From positions 1 to 51,448 of the forward strand of contig JABGOU010000027.1 in NCBI GenBank assembly GCA_018645325.1: a stretch of 51,448 nt of DNA, written 5' to 3'. This DNA is from Desulfobacula sp. Lineage in GTDB: Bacteria > Desulfobacterota > Desulfobacteria > Desulfobacterales > Desulfobacteraceae. Made by a program: the position numbers and the translations under genes. How positions within the stretch are numbered: the stretch's first letter is position 1; each line of letters starts with the position of its first letter. Below are positions 903-48,350 of this stretch, piece by piece. The notes below the pieces were generated by a model, which saw nothing but the letters and a program-made list of their open reading frames with translations, had not been told where the DNA came from and ran no database searches.

Positions 903-1169
903 ATGAATACTGCGCAGCTTGCAAAGATATTTAAAGCATTAGGCCATCCAACACGGATAAAAATCGTTGAACATCTTATTGATATAAATACCTGTATCTG
1001 TGGAGAAATTGTTAATATCTTTCCCTATTCTCAATCCACTATCAGCCAGCATTTAAAACTGTTAAAAGAATCCGGGATTGTCTGTGGGGAAATCGAAGGC
1101 CCGAAAACTTATTTTTGCGTGGACAAGGCTGTTTTAAATAAATTTAAGCAATATATCCAAAATTTATAA
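903..1169 (+). CDS. ArsR/SmtB-family transcriptional regulator upstream of hgcAB
   Basis: This small 88-residue winged-helix repressor has the family's normal length. The recognition helix region reads SQSTISQHLKLLKESGIV (about residues 43-60). A CxC pair (C31, C33, in TCICGEI) sits where the As/Sb-sensing ELCxC motif of classical ArsR lies, and further cysteines are at about 61 and 72. A thiol-ligated metal or metalloid effector, or a redox effector, is therefore plausible. hgcA starts 13 nt after its stop, so the two are almost certainly co-transcribed. A palindrome upstream suggests autoregulation. The effector is not known from sequence. Confidence 0.85.
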   Translation: MNTAQLAKIFKALGHPTRIKIVEHLIDINTCICGEIVNIFPYSQSTISQHLKLLKESGIVCGEIEGPKTYFCVDKAVLNKFKQYIQNL

Positions 1170-2399: not shown

Positions 2400-2681
2400 A
2401 TGAAAGATTTAAGATATTTAGAAGATGTATCATCCTTGGCACTGGATGAAGAAAAATGTATCGGCTGCAGCCTGTGTACTGAAGTCTGTCCCCAGGCTGT
2501 TTTTGAAATGAGACAGAGCAAAGCCAATATTGTTGATTTCAATGCCTGCATGGAATGTGGCGCCTGTGTCAACAACTGCCCTTCCGGGGCAATATCAGTA
2601 AGTCCAGGTGTAGGCTGAGCCGCCTATATTATCCAGGTCTGGATAAAGGGTAAAGAAAACGCCTCCTGTTGTATCGGATAG
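2400..2681 (+). CDS. hgcB: Mercury methylation ferredoxin HgcB, predicted selenoprotein (UGA at 2616-2618 read as Sec)
   Basis: HgcB is the 2x[4Fe-4S] ferredoxin that reduces the HgcA cobalt and handles mercury. Two CxxCxxCxxxC clusters are present (C20/23/26/30 and C50/53/56/60). A conventional call stops after SPGVG at residue 72. Reading the TGA as selenocysteine (residue 73) continues in frame with AAYII and ends in SCCIG at a TAG (2679-2681), giving 93 residues. HgcB proteins normally have a conserved Cys after SPGVG (Cys73 in the P. mercurii ND132 protein) and a C-terminal vicinal Cys pair, and both features are restored by readthrough. A SECIS-like hairpin follows directly. It begins 23 nt after hgcA behind AAAGGA. 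Confidence 0.9.
2616..2646 (+). promoter_or_regulatory. UGA codon plus SECIS element of hgcB
   Basis: The UGA at 2616-2618 is followed by a perfect 7-bp stem TTATCCA (2629-2635) / TGGATAA (2640-2646) enclosing the tetraloop GGTC (2636-2639). The core CAGGTCTG is identical, as I recall it, to the apex of the E. coli fdhF SECIS, whose GGUC loop is bound by SelB. The UGA-to-loop distance is 17 nt, within the usual bacterial range. The hairpin also codes for YIIQVWI, so it is embedded in the reading frame as bacterial SECIS elements are. Confidence 0.85.
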
Positions 2682-2712
2682 TGCTGCGGATCACCTGTAA
2701 AACATGTGCAGT

Positions 2713-3906
2713 CTACGGTTTGCCACTCTGGTTTGATTCTGATCTTTTTTCCAATGTAAGTTCAATCCTTGGCGGAGTTATATTTATAATATTAATTCTG
2801 TCATTGGGCAGGATTAGATTTCCTGTATTAATACTATAAAAATATGTCCCTGGTCTTGCTGAAAATAAATCAATATAAGTAAGAAGATTATTTTTATTTA
2901 ACTGGCTGACATCTTTTCTCAATCCACTGCAGGTAACAGAAATTTTAAGATCATTTGGCCGGGATACCATAAGCTCTGCCGGTATATTTTTAAAATTAAG
3001 GGGCAAATCGATTTTTTTTTCAAAATCCTGCTGCCCTGCAAGGGCCATCCACAGGATAAACACCAATGCAAATACAGCCGCCTTTATTTTATAATTCCTG
3101 GTAAACCATGATATAATTTTTTCTTTAATATTTGTATCCACATCTTTTTGGCTAAATATCACATCCTCTATTATGGTGGACAATTCTTCCTGATCTTTTA
3201 CCTTTTGAACTTTCTGATCACCAGCAAATGATATTTCCCCTCTTTCCTCTGAAATAATCATTACCCAGGCATCACATTGTTCAGTTAATCCCAGGGCTGC
3301 CCTGTGCCTTGTTCCCCATTCCTGGGGAAGATCTTCCCTGGCAGACAAGGGCAGGTAGCAGGATACTTTCAAAATTTTCCCCCTGCAAATAAGGATTGCC
3401 CCATCATGTAGCGGTGATTCCTTATAAAAAATGGAGTTCAATATCTCAGGCTGGGGATCACATTCCATAGAAATCCCTTTGGTGACTAAATCAAATGTCA
3501 AGTCTGATCTTTCAAAAACAATGAGTGCGCCGATTCTTCTTTTGGCTGCGTCAAAGACCCAGTCTGCAAACTCAGGTATCCAGTTATCCCTGGCTACTCC
3601 CTGTTTAAATCCTAAATTCTTCAAAGGATTAAACCGCTCAAGCATCTGTCTAATTTCTTTTTGAAACAGGATAATCAAGAGAATAACAAAGACCTGCCAT
3701 AAAATCTGAAAAACCCAGGTGGTTAAAAAAAGCCCCCAGTATTTGGCCACAATAAAGATTCCGCTTAAAAGGACAATACCGATAAGGGCTTTAAAGGCTT
3801 TGGTGCCCCAGAACCATATATAGAGCTGATAGGAAACCATGGAAATAAACAAGATATCAAGAATATCCGGCACTCCGATATTAGACAATAGGGCAAACAA
3901 ATTCAT
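2713..3906 (-). CDS. cdaA: Diadenylate cyclase CdaA with C-terminal YbbR-like domain
   Basis: The enzyme makes c-di-AMP from two ATP at the membrane. Three N-terminal transmembrane helices (about residues 10-80) are followed by the DAC domain with both signature motifs, DGA (168-170) and GTRHR (198-202). After it come one more membrane helix (about 273-290) and an extracytoplasmic YbbR-like beta domain up to 397. In many bacteria CdaA and the YbbR protein CdaR are separate neighbouring genes; here they appear to be one polypeptide. It converges on hgcB with only 31 bp between. c-di-AMP in Desulfobacterota is expected to act in osmotic and cell-wall control, which is inference. Confidence 0.88.
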   Translation of the reverse strand: MNLFALLSNIGVPDILDILFISMVSYQLYIWFWGTKAFKALIGIVLLSGIFIVAKYWGLFLTTWVFQILWQVFVILLIILFQKEIRQMLERFNPLKNLGFKQGVARDNWIPEFADWVFDAAKRRIGALIVFERSDLTFDLVTKGISMECDPQPEILNSIFYKESPLHDGAILICRGKILKVSCYLPLSAREDLPQEWGTRHRAALGLTEQCDAWVMIISEERGEISFAGDQKVQKVKDQEELSTIIEDVIFSQKDVDTNIKEKIISWFTRNYKIKAAVFALVFILWMALAGQQDFEKKIDLPLNFKNIPAELMVSRPNDLKISVTCSGLRKDVSQLNKNNLLTYIDLFSARPGTYFYSINTGNLILPNDRINIINITPPRIELTLEKRSESNQSGKP

Positions 3907-20305: not shown

Positions 20306-21742
20306 TTAATGGCTTAACTCTTGGCCTTTTGAATCATAGATTTTTATATCAATTATCTTACCGCCGTCCAGGCTGTGGGTTGCACAGGAAATTCAGGGGT
20401 CATAGGCCCTGACCGCCATTTCGATCTTATTGAGTATAGCGTCATCATAAACCCCGTTTTTAATTAGATCCCTTGCCGCCCTGTCCACGCTTAGGTTAAT
20501 GGGAGCAAGGTTGTGAGTTGTGCCCACAATGAGGTTCACCCGGGTAATAAGACCTTTTTCATCCGTTGTATAATCGTGTATAAGGGTGCCTCTCGGAGCC
20601 TCAACACATCCGACGCCCCTTCCTGCGCAGGGCTCGACCTTAGCCCGGACTTCAGGGTTGATAATCCTGGGATCTTTTAAAATTTCAATGGCCCTTTCAC
20701 AGGTATAGACTTCCTCAATCAGTCTTGCATAATGATAAAGAAGGGTGGATTGTGCAGGGCGGCCATACAGATCTCGGAACTCTTCAAGTTCGGCCTGGGC
20801 TCTTGGCGTTGCAATCTGATCCGCCACATTGATCCTTGCAAGTGTATTGGATCGATAGATGCCTTTTGGAGCATCAAGATCCATTGAAAATCCTTCTCCC
20901 CAGGATTTTGCATAGGGGAACTTCCCATATGAGAAGGGAACCACCTTTTCCGCCAGATGATCCAGATATTCATCCGGACGAAATTCCTTACTGGTTCCAT
21001 CGGGTTTCATTAAGCGGATATTGCCGTCATACAGATTTAAACTGCCTTTATTGTCAACCATCCCGATGAAACCCGTTGTAATTTCTCCAAGCCCAGGGTA
21101 AGATTCATCAAATTTTGGGAAAACATTTTTTTTTGCATATTCCAGGGCAAAAAGGGCAAATTCTAGAAGCTCATTCACATTATCAATAAATATTTTACGA
21201 TCCTCTATTGAAAGCGGCTTCACAAAACCACCTGGTACACCGGCAACTGGGTGAATGGTTTTTTTGGAAAAACTGTCAAGGACCATTTTAGCCTTATGCC
21301 GCATCCTGATCACTTTCTCGGCAAGCTCCGGGTTTGCCTTCACAAGCCCCATAATGTTACGAACACTGAAATCATACTCAGGTCCCCAAAAAAAATCAGC
21401 TCCGGCCAGGAAGAAAAAATGAAGCAACTTGTCCTCTATATGGGCAATAGTCAGCATCAACTCTCTTAAAAGGTTTCCAGCAGGTGGGGGAGTGACATTA
21501 AAACAGGCATCCACGGCCTTGTTGGAAGCAATATGATGCATCCAGGGACAAATGCCACAAATTCTGCTTACTATCCTTGGAAGTTCTTCTGCTGGTTTGC
21601 CTTCAACAAATTTTTCAAACCCTCTAAGGGACTTAAACGCTACTTTTGTTTCCTGAACATTACCCTGATCATTTAGCTGGATATGAATCGATGCATGACC
21701 TTCTATACGGGTTATAGGTTGAATATTAATTACTTTTGCCAT
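20306..21742 (-). CDS. mvhA: Mvh-type [NiFe] hydrogenase large subunit, predicted selenoprotein (UGA at 20395-20393 read as Sec)
   Basis: The catalytic subunit of the cytoplasmic group 3 hydrogenase. The N-terminal Ni motif RICGICPWMH is present. A conventional call ends at AYDP, one residue before the C-terminal Ni ligand. Reading the TGA as Sec continues DP-Sec-ISCATH and 22 further residues to a TAA, giving 478 residues and the normal DPCxxCxxH motif with Sec for the first Cys. The tail after His would be removed by the maturation protease. It follows mvhG by 5 bp. Sec-containing forms of this family (Vhu/Mvh) are known from methanogens and some sulfate reducers. Confidence 0.92.
20360..20395 (-). 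promoter_or_regulatory. UGA codon plus candidate SECIS of mvhA
   Basis: Downstream of the UGA, ACC (20380-20378) can pair with GGT (20362-20360) and GCC (20373-20371) with GGC (20365-20363). They enclose the loop TGGAC, which has G at position two, 22 nt after the UGA. The stem is interrupted by an unpaired CACA, so it is weaker than the hgcB and hysA elements. An alternative CTGTG/CACAG hairpin (20387-20372) sits closer to the UGA but has no G in its loop. Confidence 0.5.
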
Positions 21743-25332: not shown

Positions 25333-25475
25333 TACTCTAAATCATATTTGGCACAATGTAAAGTTGGCATATTTCGCACAAATGTTTACCCTCTCTCTTT
25401 GATAGGGAGGGCTGATATAATAGTCACACAAGAGTAATAATGTATTTTGTTTTTAACAGCATATAGGAGGTGCCC

Positions 25476-26432
25476 GTGAAAGACAAAGAAATGTTGATGA
25501 ATTGTCAACAAAAGAAAACAGGGGTTTCCAGGAGGACTTTTTTGAAAACCCTTACCGGTACAGCTGCCGGAATCGGCTTTTCTCAGGTGTTTAACCCTGC
25601 TTTTGTTTCAGCACTTGAAAAGGCTCTTGAAACCCATCCGGTTCTCTGGGTCCAGGGGCAAGGCTGCACAGGGTGTTCAGTTTCCTTGTTAAACAGTGTT
25701 GATCCATCCATCGCAGATGTACTTCTTAAAGTTATCAGCCTTCAGTTCCATCCCACAGTGATGGCCAGTGAAGGCGAGACTGCCCTGGAAAACCTTTACC
25801 ACATTGCAGAAAAATATAAAGGAAAATTCTCTTTAGCAGTTGAAGGTGCCATTCCAATGGCGGCAAATGGGAAATACTGTGTAGTTGGAGAGCTTGACCA
25901 CAAAGAAATTACTATGGTTGACATTGTAAAAGACCTAGGTGCAAAAGCAGGAAGTGTTCTATCTGTGGGAACCTGCGCCGCATATGGCGGTATTCCAGCT
26001 GCCAAAGGCAATCAAACCGAGGCAGTTGGTGTAATGGATTTCTTTAAACTTTATGGCATTAAAACTCCAGTTGTCAATATCCCCGGATGTCCTTCACATC
26101 CTGACTGGATTGTCGGATCCATTGCTCACCTGCTGACAAAAGGCCTGCCCGAACTGGATGACGATGGACGTCCCGTTGTTTTCTTTGGAGAGAATATCCA
26201 TGACAACTGCTCTCATGTTGAAGAGTATGACAATGGCATCATGTCTGCCGGACTCTCTGATGCCAAGGGCTGTCGTATGGATCTTGGGTGCAAAGGTCCG
26301 GATACATATGCTGACTGTTACAAAAGAAAATGGAACAGCGGTCTGAACTGGTGTGTGGACAATTCTGTCTGTATTGGTTGTGTTGAACCGGGATTCCCGG
26401 ATGCATCATCACCCTTTTATGAACCCGCATAA
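25476..26432 (+). CDS. hysB: Periplasmic [NiFeSe] hydrogenase small subunit
   Basis: The Fe-S subunit of the exported hydrogenase. A Tat signal (SRRTFLKTLTGTAAG) precedes WVQGQGCTGCSVSLLN, the proximal cluster site. GTCAAYGGIPA, NIPGCPSHPDWI and the C-terminal cysteines (C-R-M-D-LGCKGP, CIGCVEPGFPD) bind the other clusters. The start is taken as GTG 25476, with AGGAGG 5 nt upstream; a GTG at 25470 overlaps that site. The absence of a hydrophobic C-terminal anchor suggests a soluble or otherwise attached periplasmic enzyme. Confidence 0.93.
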   Translation: MKDKEMLMNCQQKKTGVSRRTFLKTLTGTAAGIGFSQVFNPAFVSALEKALETHPVLWVQGQGCTGCSVSLLNSVDPSIADVLLKVISLQFHPTVMASEGETALENLYHIAEKYKGKFSLAVEGAIPMAANGKYCVVGELDHKEITMVDIVKDLGAKAGSVLSVGTCAAYGGIPAAKGNQTEAVGVMDFFKLYGIKTPVVNIPGCPSHPDWIVGSIAHLLTKGLPELDDDGRPVVFFGENIHDNCSHVEEYDNGIMSAGLSDAKGCRMDLGCKGPDTYADCYKRKWNSGLNWCVDNSVCIGCVEPGFPDASSPFYEPA

Positions 26433-26475: not shown

Positions 26476-27987
26476 ATGGCAGGCTGTAAACCACAAGCGG
26501 CTCCAATCGCAGCCGGAAAAAAAATTAAGGTTGCCATTGATCCAGTTACCAGGATTGAGGGACATCTTAAAGTAGAAGTTGAAATAAAAGATGGTGTTGT
26601 ATCAGATGCAAGAGTATTTGGTGGCATGTACCGCGGTTTTGAACAAATATTGATCGGCAGGGATCCAAGGGATGCTTCCCAGATTACCCAGAGGATCTGC
26701 GGTGTTTGCCCGACTGCTCATGCAACTGCATCTGCACTGGCACTCGATGATGCATTCAATGTTAAATTGACCAAAAACGGCAGAATTGCAAGAAACCTGA
26801 TTTTAGGCGCCAATTACCTTCAATCTCATATTCTTCATTTCTATCATCTTGCTGCGCTGGACTATGTCAATGGTCCTGATGTTGCTCCATTTATTCCAAG
26901 ATATGCAAAAAATGATATTCGTGTACCTAAAGACATTAACGACGTTGCTGTGGGTCAATATCTTGAGGCCCTTGAAATGAGAAAAATCTGCCAGGAAATG
27001 ATAGCACTTCTTGGTGGGAAAATGCCCCATGTTCAGGGTATTGTTGTGGGTGGAACAACAGAGATCCCAACAAGAGAAGCGTTAAATGCCTATGCAGAAC
27101 GTTTCAAAAAAGTCAAAAAATTTATCCTGGAAAAATATGTCCCCATTGTTTACCTGCTTGCAGGACCCTATGGAGATCTCTTAAAAACCGGTGGCGGTTA
27201 TCAAAACTGTGTGGCTTGGGGAGTATTTCCCATGGATGATGCAGGCAATACACTTCTGAAAAGAGGGGTTTATACGGATGGTAAAGATTATCCGGTTGAT
27301 ACGGCACTCATCAAAGAGTATGTAAAATATTCTTATTTTGATGATTCTACAACGGGTTTGAACCCAACCCAGGGAAAAACCATACCTAACCCAGACAAAA
27401 AAGGTGCATACAGCTTTATCAAAGCACCCAGATACAATGGCAAACCCCACGAAGGAGGCCCTCTTGCAAGAATGTGGGTCACCAATCCTGAACTGTCTAA
27501 AATCGGTCAGGAAAAACTGGGTGTAAAAAACCTTCGTGATATTGGAGATGCCGCGTTCTCAATTCTCGGCAGGCATGTTGCCAGAGCAGAGGAGACCGTC
27601 ATGGTTGCTGATGCTGTTGAACAATGGATTGGGGAAGCAGTCCCGGGAAAAGAAACTTTTATTCCCGTTCCAATTCCGGATTCCGCAGAAGGCCTTGGGC
27701 TTACAGAAGCACCCCGGGGAGCTCTTCTTCACTACATTGACATTAAAGATAAAAAGATTGCAAATTACCAGATAACGTCGGCAACTATCTGGAATGCAAA
27801 TCCAATGGATGATATGGGTCAGAGAGGACCAATGGAACAGGCGCTTATTGGGGTTCCTGTCCCTGATCCTGAAAACCCGGTGAATGTGGGGCGGTTGATA
27901 CGCTCCTTTGACCCCTGACTGGGATGTGCCGTCCACGTGCTGGACGCAGACACAGGCAGAAAAATTAAAGTAGAAATTCCATTATAA
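26476..27987 (+). CDS. hysA: [NiFeSe] hydrogenase large subunit, selenoprotein (UGA at 27916-27918 read as Sec)
   Basis: The catalytic subunit. The N-terminal Ni motif is RICGVCPTAH. A conventional call stops at SFDP; reading the TGA as Sec gives DP-Sec-LGCAVH plus a 16-residue tail to a TAA, 503 residues in total. This is exactly the [NiFeSe] signature, with Sec replacing the first Cys of the C-terminal CxxC that binds nickel. The start has AAGGAGG ideally placed. It has no signal peptide of its own and is co-exported with HysB through the Tat pathway. The tail after His is cleaved by the protease encoded next. Confidence 0.95.
27916..27946 (+). promoter_or_regulatory. UGA codon plus SECIS of hysA
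   Basis: After the UGA, CGTCCA (27930-27935) pairs perfectly with TGGACG (27941-27946) around the loop CGTGC, with G at its second position. The loop begins 18 nt after the UGA (17 intervening nt), the same spacing as in hgcB. Confidence 0.8.
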
Positions 27988-46302: not shown

Positions 46303-46340
46303 TTTCGCTGTAACTCTCTATAAATCAAAAGGTGAATCAA

Positions 46341-48350
46341 ATGAAAGGATTTTTTAAAAAAGGACTTGAAGACGAAGACGATTCAAGCGAAATTCATGAA
46401 TTAAGACAAAGTGTCCTGGACAAAAAAATGCCGGAACCGGTTGAAAAGACTGTTCTGAAAGAAATTGACAGGCTTTTTAAAATTCACCCGTCCTCTGCGG
46501 AATACACCATTGGGATCAATTATATTGATTATCTGACAACACTTCCATGGAACCAATACACAGAAGACAACCTGGATATAAACCATGCCGAATCCATCCT
46601 TGACAGAGCGCACTACGGCCTGGATGAAATAAAAGAAAGAATTCTGGAACACCTGGCTGTCCGGATCATGAAATTGTCTGCAAAAAAAACCATTCTGGTA
46701 GTAGATGATGAAAAAATGACCCGGATGAATCTTTCCCATGTCCTTGGAAAAGACGGATATGAAGTTGAAATAGCCGAGAGCGGTACAAAAGCGCTTGAAA
46801 AAATGGAGGAAACCACCTTTGATCTTGTCATAACAGATCTAAAGATGGACAAGGTGGATGGCCTGATGCTACTAGATAGTATTAAAAAAAACAGCCCGGG
46901 AACAGAAGTGATTATCATCACCGGGTATGCCACGGTCCTGACTGCAGTGGATGCCATCAAAAGAGGGTCTTTTCATTTTATTGCCAAACCTCTGAAGCTG
47001 GATGAGGTCCGCACAACCGTGAAAAGCGCATTGTCTAAAAAAACCGGGGTCATGAACACAAGAAGCCCGGTGATCTGCTTCACAGGCCCTCCGGGAACAG
47101 GTAAAACTTCTTTGGGACAATCCATTGCCACAAGTCTGGAACGTAAATTTGTCCGGATATCTCTTGCAGGAATAAAGGATGAAGCAGACATCCGAGGGCA
47201 CCGAAGAAGTTATGTCGGAGCAATGTCTGGCAGAATCATCCAGGAACTTCGGCGGGCGGAATCCAACAATCCGGTATTCATGCTGGATGAAATCGACAAA
47301 ATCGGTCAGGATTTCAAGGGGGATCCAGCATCAGCATTACTTGAAGTTCTTGATCCACAGCAGAATTCACAGTTTATTGACCATTATATGGACGTTCCAT
47401 TCGATCTTTCCAAGGTGATGTTTATTGCAACCGCCAATACCATCGGCAGAATTCCAGCCCCGCTTCTGGACCGGTTTGAAGTGATTTCCCTTTCCGGATA
47501 CACCGTGGAAGAAAAAATCAACATAGCACTCCGGCACCTTATACCAAAAGCCGTTGAAGATGCAGGTCTGGGACGAAATCCCCTTGTATTTTCTGAAGCT
47601 GCCTTAAAAAAGATTATCCGTGAGCACACGCGGGAGGCCGGTTTAAGGGAGCTGGAAAGAAAAATTTCTTCCATCTGTCGGAAAATCACCCGGAAGCTCG
47701 TGAAACAGACCATGGATCCAACTGATCTGGAAATAACCGAAAAACGCGTTGATGACCTGCTAGGACCCAGCCAGTACCATTTTGAAATTGCCGGTGCGAA
47801 AGACCGCATAGGATGTGCAACCGGACTTGCATGGACTGAAACGGGTGGAGAAATCATTTTTGTGGAGGCCACCAAAATGATGGGCTCCCAGCAGCTTATC
47901 CTGACCGGTTCTTTGGGTGATGTCATGAAAGAATCTGCCCAGGCGGCGTTAAGCTATATCCGGAGCAATACTCAAATTTTTGGTCTTGCACCCGACTTTT
48001 TCCACGGTCATGATATCCATATTCATGTTCCGGCAGGAGCCATCCCAAAAGACGGTCCGTCTGCCGGACTCACGCTAGCCATGGCGCTGTTATCCCTCTT
48101 AAAGGGCAAACCCTGCCGGCGGGATACAGCAATGACAGGAGAATTGACCTTGAGCGGGCGGATTCTTCCAGTAAGTGGTATCCGGGAAAAGCTGCTTGCA
48201 GCAAAAATTGCAGGCATCAAAACAGTTATTATCCCTTTAAAGAATCAGGCAGAGCTGCCAACGCTCAGCGAAACACTTATCAAAGGCATCCGGATCGTGA
48301 CGGCCGGAGAGCTTATCGAGATTATGGATATTGTTCTAAAGGACAGTTAA
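46341..48350 (+). CDS. Lon-family ATP-dependent protease with an inserted response-regulator receiver domain
   Basis: 669 residues. The long N-terminal LON substrate domain is missing. The protein begins with only the helical neck (about 15-108, ending DEIKERILEHLAV), which normally joins directly to the ATPase. Here a complete receiver domain (about 114-231; acidic DD at 122-123, phospho-acceptor Asp166, Thr and Lys switch residues in ITGYAT and IAKP) is inserted. It is followed by Walker A GPPGTGKTS (249-257), Walker B VFMLDEID (312-319) and the protease domain with PKDGPSAG (Ser574) and REKLLAA (Lys617), the Ser-Lys dyad at the E. coli spacing. The start at ATG 46341 follows AAGGTG. It is probably a phosphorylation-gated cytosolic protease. 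Confidence 0.93.
   Translation: MKGFFKKGLEDEDDSSEIHELRQSVLDKKMPEPVEKTVLKEIDRLFKIHPSSAEYTIGINYIDYLTTLPWNQYTEDNLDINHAESILDRAHYGLDEIKERILEHLAVRIMKLSAKKTILVVDDEKMTRMNLSHVLGKDGYEVEIAESGTKALEKMEETTFDLVITDLKMDKVDGLMLLDSIKKNSPGTEVIIITGYATVLTAVDAIKRGSFHFIAKPLKLDEVRTTVKSALSKKTGVMNTRSPVICFTGPPGTGKTSLGQSIATSLERKFVRISLAGIKDEADIRGHRRSYVGAMSGRIIQELRRAESNNPVFMLDEIDKIGQDFKGDPASALLEVLDPQQNSQFIDHYMDVPFDLSKVMFIATANTIGRIPAPLLDRFEVISLSGYTVEEKINIALRHLIPKAVEDAGLGRNPLVFSEAALKKIIREHTREAGLRELERKISSICRKITRKLVKQTMDPTDLEITEKRVDDLLGPSQYHFEIAGAKDRIGCATGLAWTETGGEIIFVEATKMMGSQQLILTGSLGDVMKESAQAALSYIRSNTQIFGLAPDFFHGHDIHIHVPAGAIPKDGPSAGLTLAMALLSLLKGKPCRRDTAMTGELTLSGRILPVSGIREKLLAAKIAGIKTVIIPLKNQAELPTLSETLIKGIRIVTAGELIEIMDIVLKDS

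What the first reader, a model, noticed from the sequence alone, without database searches (positions are those of the whole stretch)
2400..2681. HgcB of the mercury-methylation pair is predicted to be a selenoprotein
The conserved mercury-handling cysteine that follows SPGVG in HgcB is encoded here by an in-frame UGA (codon 73). Readthrough restores 20 more residues with the usual Ala-Ala-Tyr-Ile start and the C-terminal Cys-Cys pair. A perfect 7-bp hairpin with a GGTC loop 17 nt after the UGA matches the apex of the E. coli fdhF SECIS. Two other UGA-containing genes in the window (hysA, mvhA) show the cell uses Sec. A selenol binds Hg(II) far more tightly than a thiol and has a lower pKa, so Sec at the step that accepts or delivers mercury could change methylation rate or selectivity and link it to selenium supply. 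I know of no description of a Sec-containing HgcB, but could not search.
Basis: partly seen in the sequence, partly recalled or inferred. Interest (0 to 1): 0.96.

Follow-up and report, generated by a model that had tools for sequence, protein, structure and literature searches.

The report
Selenocysteine version of mercury-methylation protein HgcB
A sulfate-reducing bacterium related to Desulfobacula appears to build the mercury-methylation protein HgcB with selenocysteine at the position that normally holds an essential cysteine; such forms have been in print since 2023, but here the surrounding bacterial family seems to use them throughout, so methylmercury formation in that group may depend on selenium.

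Summary
hgcB (2400-2681) has an in-frame UGA at codon 73, the counterpart of ND132 Cys73, whose change to Ala abolishes methylation (PMC7305189). The HgcB profile continues past it, and selA-D are in the genome. Relatives give the strongest evidence: all 48 HgcB-bearing genomes of the window's family in the order draw have UGA there. In 57 UGA-type genes both arms of the downstream hairpin are identical and its three Ile codons never vary, whereas they vary in 33 Cys-type genes. On an HgcA tree 55 of 56 Sec rows form one clade without return to Cys. So this is very probably a selenoprotein. The idea is not new: a 2026 review lists HgcB with motif GVGU, citing Haft and Gwadz 2023 (that paper not held). 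Corrections: the C-terminal Cys-Cys is rearranged here (SCCIG, then TAG), and hairpin energy alone is unremarkable (z -1.49). Possibly new: family-wide fixation, hence possible selenium gating of mercury methylation. No protein evidence exists here.

The parts
903..1169 (+). ArsR/SmtB-family metalloregulator gene, 88 aa, directly upstream of hgcA
   Evidence: NF033788 E 2.6e-19, 68.8 bits over cut-off 55; PF01022
1183..2376 (+). hgcA, corrinoid protein of mercury methylation; cap-helix motif NVWCAAGK with Cys; ends in a UGA stop
   Evidence: NF040863 E 2.8e-129; open frame of 397 aa under the standard bacterial code; motif
2400..2681 (+). hgcB, 93 residues with Sec at 73, TAG stop
2616..2618 (+). 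in-frame UGA (codon 73) predicted to be read as selenocysteine; aligns with the Cys after PGVG
2629..2646 (+). SECIS apical hairpin, 7 bp with GGUC loop
   Evidence: both arms identical in 57 of 57 UGA-type genes
2667..2672 (+). Cys90-Cys91 codons, the only Cys-Cys pair between the UGA and the stop
   Evidence: compared with relatives
2679..2681 (+). TAG stop, directly followed by two Cys codons (2682-2687); the genome also encodes PylS

Best explanation
hgcB is a selenoprotein gene. SelB with Sec-tRNA reads UGA 2616-2618 as selenocysteine because of the hairpin at 2629-2646. Translation then runs on to TAG 2679-2681 and gives a 93-residue HgcB with two [4Fe-4S] clusters, Sec73 and a C-terminal Cys-Cys (90-91). 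Shown by sequence: the UGA, the conserved frame beyond it, the invariant hairpin, the Sec machinery and the fixation in the family. Inferred: that Sec is really inserted, and that Sec73 does what Cys73 is proposed to do in ND132 HgcB, namely accept CH3Hg+ (or Hg(II)) from the C-terminal thiols and pass it on, with the lower pKa and stronger Hg affinity of a selenolate. It follows (inferred) that the mercury-handling part of HgcB is made only when selenium is available, because all of it lies after the UGA.
For: HgcB profile continues across the UGA. selA/B/C/D present; two further UGA hydrogenase genes in the window. 57 of 90 distinct HgcB read from the order-level loci have UGA and 33 have Cys at this codon; all 48 HgcB-bearing genomes of the own family in that draw have UGA. 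In the UGA genes Ile77 is ATT, Ile78 ATC and Ile82 ATA in 57 of 57; mean codon entropy over the five codons counted in 77-82 is 0.20 bits against 1.23 at 43 other conserved codons. The 7-base arms are identical in 57 of 57, and the loop has G at its second position in all 57. In Cys genes these codons vary. 39 of 57 UGA genes also end in UGA, so UGA is both Sec and stop in one mRNA. One Sec clade of 55 rows, SH-aLRT 100, with no Cys row inside. ND132 Cys73Ala abolishes methylation (PMC7305189, passages).
Against: No protein or 75Se evidence. Hairpin energy alone does not stand out (z -1.49), and the peptide IIQxWIK gives 6 of 7 pairs even in 14 of 33 Cys genes and all 7 in one, so the hairpin by itself proves little; the arms do not vary, so no covariation can be claimed. 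SelB scored over its cut-off in 50 of 55 other Sec-HgcB genomes and in all 25 Cys-HgcB genomes tried, so its presence permits but does not discriminate; of the five misses, G374 is called 100% complete. 4 of 57 UGA-type genes, the window's included, do not end in Cys-Cys directly before their first stop.
Confidence: 0.92

Rival explanations
1. The UGA is a plain stop and the gene makes a 72-residue ferredoxin without residue 73 or the tail cysteines; the sequence after it is a relic.
For: UGA is the ordinary stop of hgcA and of most hgcB genes read. Hairpin energy is unremarkable. Two UGA-type genes in the genus, L052 and L108, lack the terminal Cys-Cys.
Against: The frame after the UGA is kept in 57 distinct genes, with invariant residues and invariant synonymous codons in the hairpin. 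No Cys row lies inside the 55-row Sec clade.
Confidence: 0.03
2. Selenium-dependent switch: one gene makes two functional products, full-length Sec-HgcB when selenium is plentiful and a 72-residue two-cluster ferredoxin when it is scarce, which still reduces HgcA but cannot handle mercury.
For: Both FeS motifs lie before the UGA and the residues tied to mercury handling lie after it. The arrangement is fixed in the family as far as read.
Against: Not tested. Nothing shows that the 72-residue form is stable or used; the arrangement also follows simply from where Cys73 lies.
Confidence: 0.15
3. The TAG at 2679-2681 is read, at least partly, as pyrrolysine, so that the Cys-Cys codons after it are also translated and one protein holds both Sec and Pyl.
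For: PylS is in the genome (319 bits). The codons after TAG are TGC TGC, and the HgcB profile aligned on to 2687. Sec and Pyl together are described from Desulfobacula-related bacteria (PMC8318568, passages).
Against: Same-genus relatives stop right after Cys-Cys in 15 of 17, whereas this frame runs on. SCC-type ends occur naturally: L089 ends ASCC-TAG and L116 ACCC-TAG in genomes without a PylS match, and L116 too has Cys-Cys codons further on; Cys-type L250 and L251 end ASCC. TAG is the stop of 9 of 90 HgcB genes read, and the five UGA-type ones share no continuation after it.
Confidence: 0.03

Closest known systems
Selenoprotein form of HgcB (NF040864; Haft and Gwadz 2023, J Bacteriol e00259-22; row 'GVGU, WP_250697400.1' in PMC13188914)
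   Same: Same family, same site (the residue after PGVG), predicted from sequence in the same way
   Different: No difference found at the site. The original paper could not be read (not held), so whether it reports family-wide fixation or the SECIS codon constraint is unknown to me.
Cys-type HgcB of Pseudodesulfovibrio mercurii ND132
   Same: Two CxxCxxCxxxCP motifs; essential residue number 73; C-terminal cysteines (PMC7305189, passages)
   Different: Sec in place of Cys73; Cys-Cys at 90-91 followed by Ile-Gly rather than at the very end
Selenoprotein form of HgcA (NF040863, motif CU in PMC13188914)
   Same: Sec use in the partner protein of the same pathway
   Different: The window's HgcA has Cys in NVWCAAGK and no internal UGA. 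A CU in frame near the HgcA N-terminus was seen in L128 (G010), whose HgcB is Cys-type; its start codon was not checked.
Dual Sec and Pyl code expansion in Desulfobacula-related Deltaproteobacteria (PMC8318568, passages)
   Same: Sec machinery and PylS in one genome of this lineage
   Different: That main text holds no occurrence of 'mercury' or 'hgc'

Membership tests
HgcB (NF040864) | Whole-protein score over the curated cut-off of 99 bits | tested here: met
   122 bits, residues 5-91
HgcB (NF040864) | Two 4Fe-4S motifs and PGVG followed by Cys or Sec, next to hgcA | tested here: met
   hgcA at 1183-2376
HgcB (NF040864) | At least one Cys in the C-terminal tail | tested here: met
   Cys90-Cys91 before the TAG, at an unusual place
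HgcB (NF040864) | Mercury methylation activity | not testable with these tools
   Needs culture and assay
Bacterial selenoprotein | In-frame UGA aligned with a conserved Cys of homologues | tested here: met
   57 UGA against 33 Cys at the same codon in the 90 genes read
Bacterial selenoprotein | Hairpin shortly after the UGA with a G in the first two loop positions (rule recalled) | tested here: met
   loops GGTC 45, GGTT 6, GGGC 2, GGTG 2, GGTA 1, AGTT 1 of 57. Energy alone not significant
Bacterial selenoprotein | selA, selB, selC, selD in the genome | tested here: met
   582.9, 337.8, 75.5 and 342.4 bits, all over cut-off
Bacterial selenoprotein | Selenium present in the protein | not testable with these tools
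   Needs 75Se labelling or mass spectrometry
Pyrrolysine-containing protein | In-frame UAG with a conserved frame after it in homologues | tested here: not met
   5 of 57 UGA-type genes (window included) have TAG as first stop; the codons after it are not alike

The most novel reading that the evidence does not exclude
In a whole family of sulfate reducers, mercury methylation is obligatorily selenium-gated. The mercury-handling residues of HgcB are made only if UGA is read as Sec, so selenium supply (itself tied up by mercury) sets the methylation capacity, while selenium starvation leaves only a mercury-blind two-cluster ferredoxin.
Probability: 0.3. Interest if true: 0.72.

Novelty: new member of a known kind. 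Interest (0 to 1): 0.42.

Why it matters
HgcB's essential residue 73 is encoded as Sec in every HgcB-bearing genome of this family that I read (52; one more was not fetched), and in 8 genomes of other families of the order. This ties methylmercury formation to selenium supply in a way that can be tested directly. Annotation that stops at UGA will report these HgcB as truncated and lacking the key residue (inference). That no Cys row lies inside the Sec clade suggests that the selenolate gives a real advantage at the mercury hand-off step, whose chemistry is still open.

Tried and rejected
Considered and rejected: UGA reassigned genome-wide (hgcA itself and 39 of 57 UGA-type hgcB genes end in UGA); sequencing error at 2616-2618 (same state in 57 distinct genes); UGA as Trp (the 33 non-UGA genes read have Cys there, none Trp); hairpin energy as proof (z -1.49); UAG as Pyl (no shared continuation after TAG).

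Led nowhere or inconclusive: an AU test of a single Sec origin on 119 rows did not finish. On a hand-chosen subset of 42 rows (14 Sec, 28 Cys) one origin including L203 is not rejected (p 0.263), although the quick tree of 119 rows places L203 apart. Rfam at gathering threshold gave only a tRNA in the window. Papers listed for hgcAB with Desulfobacula and its kin were not opened. A search for hgcAB with selenium and selenocysteine found no paper; deep-Sep (PMC12013277) has no HgcB or HgcA in its main text. Unresolved rows, left out of the counts: G180 (L063), G319 (L071), L068, L070, L072 in the order draw; L187, L202, L212, L215 among the 80 named loci; G390 not fetched.

Full report
What is there. 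The window begins with the end of another gene, then an ArsR-type regulator gene (903-1169), hgcA (1183-2376) and hgcB (2400-2681) on the + strand. hgcB has TGA at 2616-2618, codon 73. Reading it as Sec gives 93 residues, MKDLRYLEDV...SPGVG-U-AAYIIQVWIKGKENASCCIG, ending at TAG. The HgcB profile NF040864 matches 5-91 at 122 bits, over its cut-off of 99. The codon is the counterpart of Cys73 of ND132, with the same number. I read passages of PMC7305189: Cys73Ala abolishes methylation in vivo; single changes of Cys94 or Cys95 have no effect, and the double change costs 95%.

Host. The window is contig C78 of a 4.39 Mb assembly, 90% complete. The nearest HgcA rows are genomes of the same genus. 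Four contigs of that genus have the same lengths as named Desulfobacula records (L140, L143, L149, L151), so Desulfobacula or a near relative is my inference. selA, selB, selC and selD are all over their cut-offs, selD itself with one in-frame TGA. Two more UGA genes lie in the window: HysA (U481, family match) and a hydrogenase large subunit (U450), named MvhA-type by recall.

Relatives. Of 389 genomes drawn from the order, 169 have HgcB at E <= 1e-18. I read the codon in 90 distinct genes found by a motif script: 57 UGA and 33 Cys. These were the places listed with a TGA inside that the script could read, plus part of the Cys-type ones, so 57:33 is not a frequency. The own family (f1) is complete for that draw: 48 of 48 genomes with HgcB have UGA (recount). 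A second draw added five f1 genomes; four were read, all UGA, and G390 was not fetched. Outside f1, 8 of 121 genomes with a match have UGA (nine genes, since G251 has two); G180 and G319 also carry a TGA inside the match but were not resolved, and most of the rest were judged by the search's column of stops rather than read. In the phylum draw 115 of 395 genomes have HgcB at E <= 1e-25; the five others with a TGA inside were read and have Cys at the site, and the remainder show no TGA inside, so only the window's own is Sec there. Of the 80 best loci in named genome contigs, which overlap these genomes, 24 are Sec-type, 52 Cys-type and 4 not resolved.

The SECIS. After the UGA every one of the 57 genes reads ATT ATC CA(G/A) NNN TGG ATA, and both 7-base arms are identical in all 57. 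Ile44 of the same genes uses three codons, and the same Ile positions in Cys-type genes vary. Residue 80, encoded by the loop, is Val in 55 of 57 Sec genes and in none of the 33 Cys genes of that set; but seven Cys-type loci outside that set do have Val (L163, L167, L175, L180, L250, L251, L256; L256 and L167 read alike). The codon constraint therefore acts on RNA. Against over-reading the hairpin: its energy is ordinary (15 of 200 shuffles as good), and the peptide IIQxWIK already gives 6 of 7 pairs in 14 of 33 Cys genes and 7 in one. My inference is that Cys-type hgcB was a few synonymous changes away from a SECIS. No covariation can be claimed, since the arms do not vary.

History. On a tree of 119 HgcA rows (56 with Sec-HgcB, 63 with Cys; quick search, no bootstrap) the state needs two changes: one clade of 55 Sec rows (SH-aLRT 100) and L203, a Desulfobulbaceae record whose UGA is followed by a different hairpin (z -1.68, 12 of 200 shuffles as good). 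A subset of 42 rows does not reject one origin (p 0.263). Sec rows from families f8, f51, f22 and f17 sit beside or inside f1 groups, while f35 and f28 rows are unresolved at the base of the clade; this suggests transfer of the Sec form, or stray contigs in those assemblies, which I did not test. No Cys row lies inside the clade.

Departures in this gene. 15 of 17 same-genus relatives end in Cys-Cys right before the stop (exceptions L052, L108), and 53 of 57 UGA-type genes do so (exceptions L052, L108, L124 and the window). Here the end is ASCCIG-TAG, and TGC TGC follows the TAG. Ends of SCC or CCC type exist elsewhere (L089, L116, L250, L251), so Cys90-Cys91 probably serves. The genome encodes PylS, as do 25 of 57 genomes tried, itself included, so a Pyl reading of the TAG cannot be excluded, but no relative supports it.

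SelB across genomes. 75 of 80 genomes score over the cut-off. The five that do not are all Sec-HgcB genomes: G384 and G363 (77-78% complete, no match), G358 (226 bits, truncated), G251 (a fragment at a contig end) and G374 (188.9 bits, which I take for an EF-Tu-like gene; called 100% complete). All 25 Cys-HgcB genomes in that call have SelB. G374's HgcB (L124) also shows a second in-frame UGA before its Cys-Cys.

Known or new. [quoted passage not shown] PMC13188914 (passages) lists HgcB, NF040864, motif GVGU, with the same citation. The 2023 paper is not held, so I know it only as cited. Searches for HgcB with selenocysteine, hgcAB with selenoprotein, HgcB with UGA, and hgcAB with selenium and selenocysteine listed those two papers and two others seen as listings only (PMC10349881, PMC3653032); no title or abstract start shown concerns selenium gating or family-wide fixation. 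The library lacks most subscription journals.

Mechanism. Shown: gene, UGA, SECIS codon constraint, machinery, fixation as far as read. Inferred: Sec insertion, and Sec73 acting as the acceptor for CH3Hg+ or Hg(II) delivered by the tail thiols (PMC7305189 proposes delivery of CH3Hg+ to Cys73). Because the residues tied to mercury handling lie after the UGA, selenium limitation should leave only a two-cluster ferredoxin. That is the open, testable part.

Noticed in passing
window 26476-27987 (+), TGA 27916-27918: NiFeSe hydrogenase large subunit HysA with Sec481 near its C-terminus, next to its small subunit at 25470-26432.
   Followed up: partly
window 20306-21742 (-), TGA 20393-20395: Second hydrogenase large subunit (MvhA type, named by recall) with Sec450, motif U-I-S-C.
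   Followed up: partly
G000 contig C90, L133: Pyrrolysyl-tRNA synthetase (319 bits): the genome has both the Sec machinery and PylS.
   Followed up: partly
window 2679-2687: TAG stop of hgcB directly followed by two Cys codons, seen in none of the 17 same-genus loci.
   Followed up: partly
L124 (G374): HgcB with a second in-frame UGA between the conserved tail Cys and DSGCC; no SelB over the cut-off was found in that assembly.
   Followed up: no
L203 2217-2261: Divergent Sec-type HgcB in a Desulfobulbaceae assembly with a different hairpin and a triloop; possibly a second origin.
   Followed up: partly
L128 (G010): HgcA frame with an in-frame UGA after a Cys near its N-terminus (CU), beside a Cys-type HgcB; fits the HgcA selenoprotein entry in PMC13188914. 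Start codon not checked.
   Followed up: no
window 2713-3906 (-): CdaA-like diadenylate cyclase, 397 aa against a profile of 254, convergent with hgcB; slightly under the family cut-off (181.5 against 188.8 bits).
   Followed up: no
window 46332-48350 (+): Lon-like protease whose residues about 116-241 match response-regulator receiver domains.
   Followed up: no
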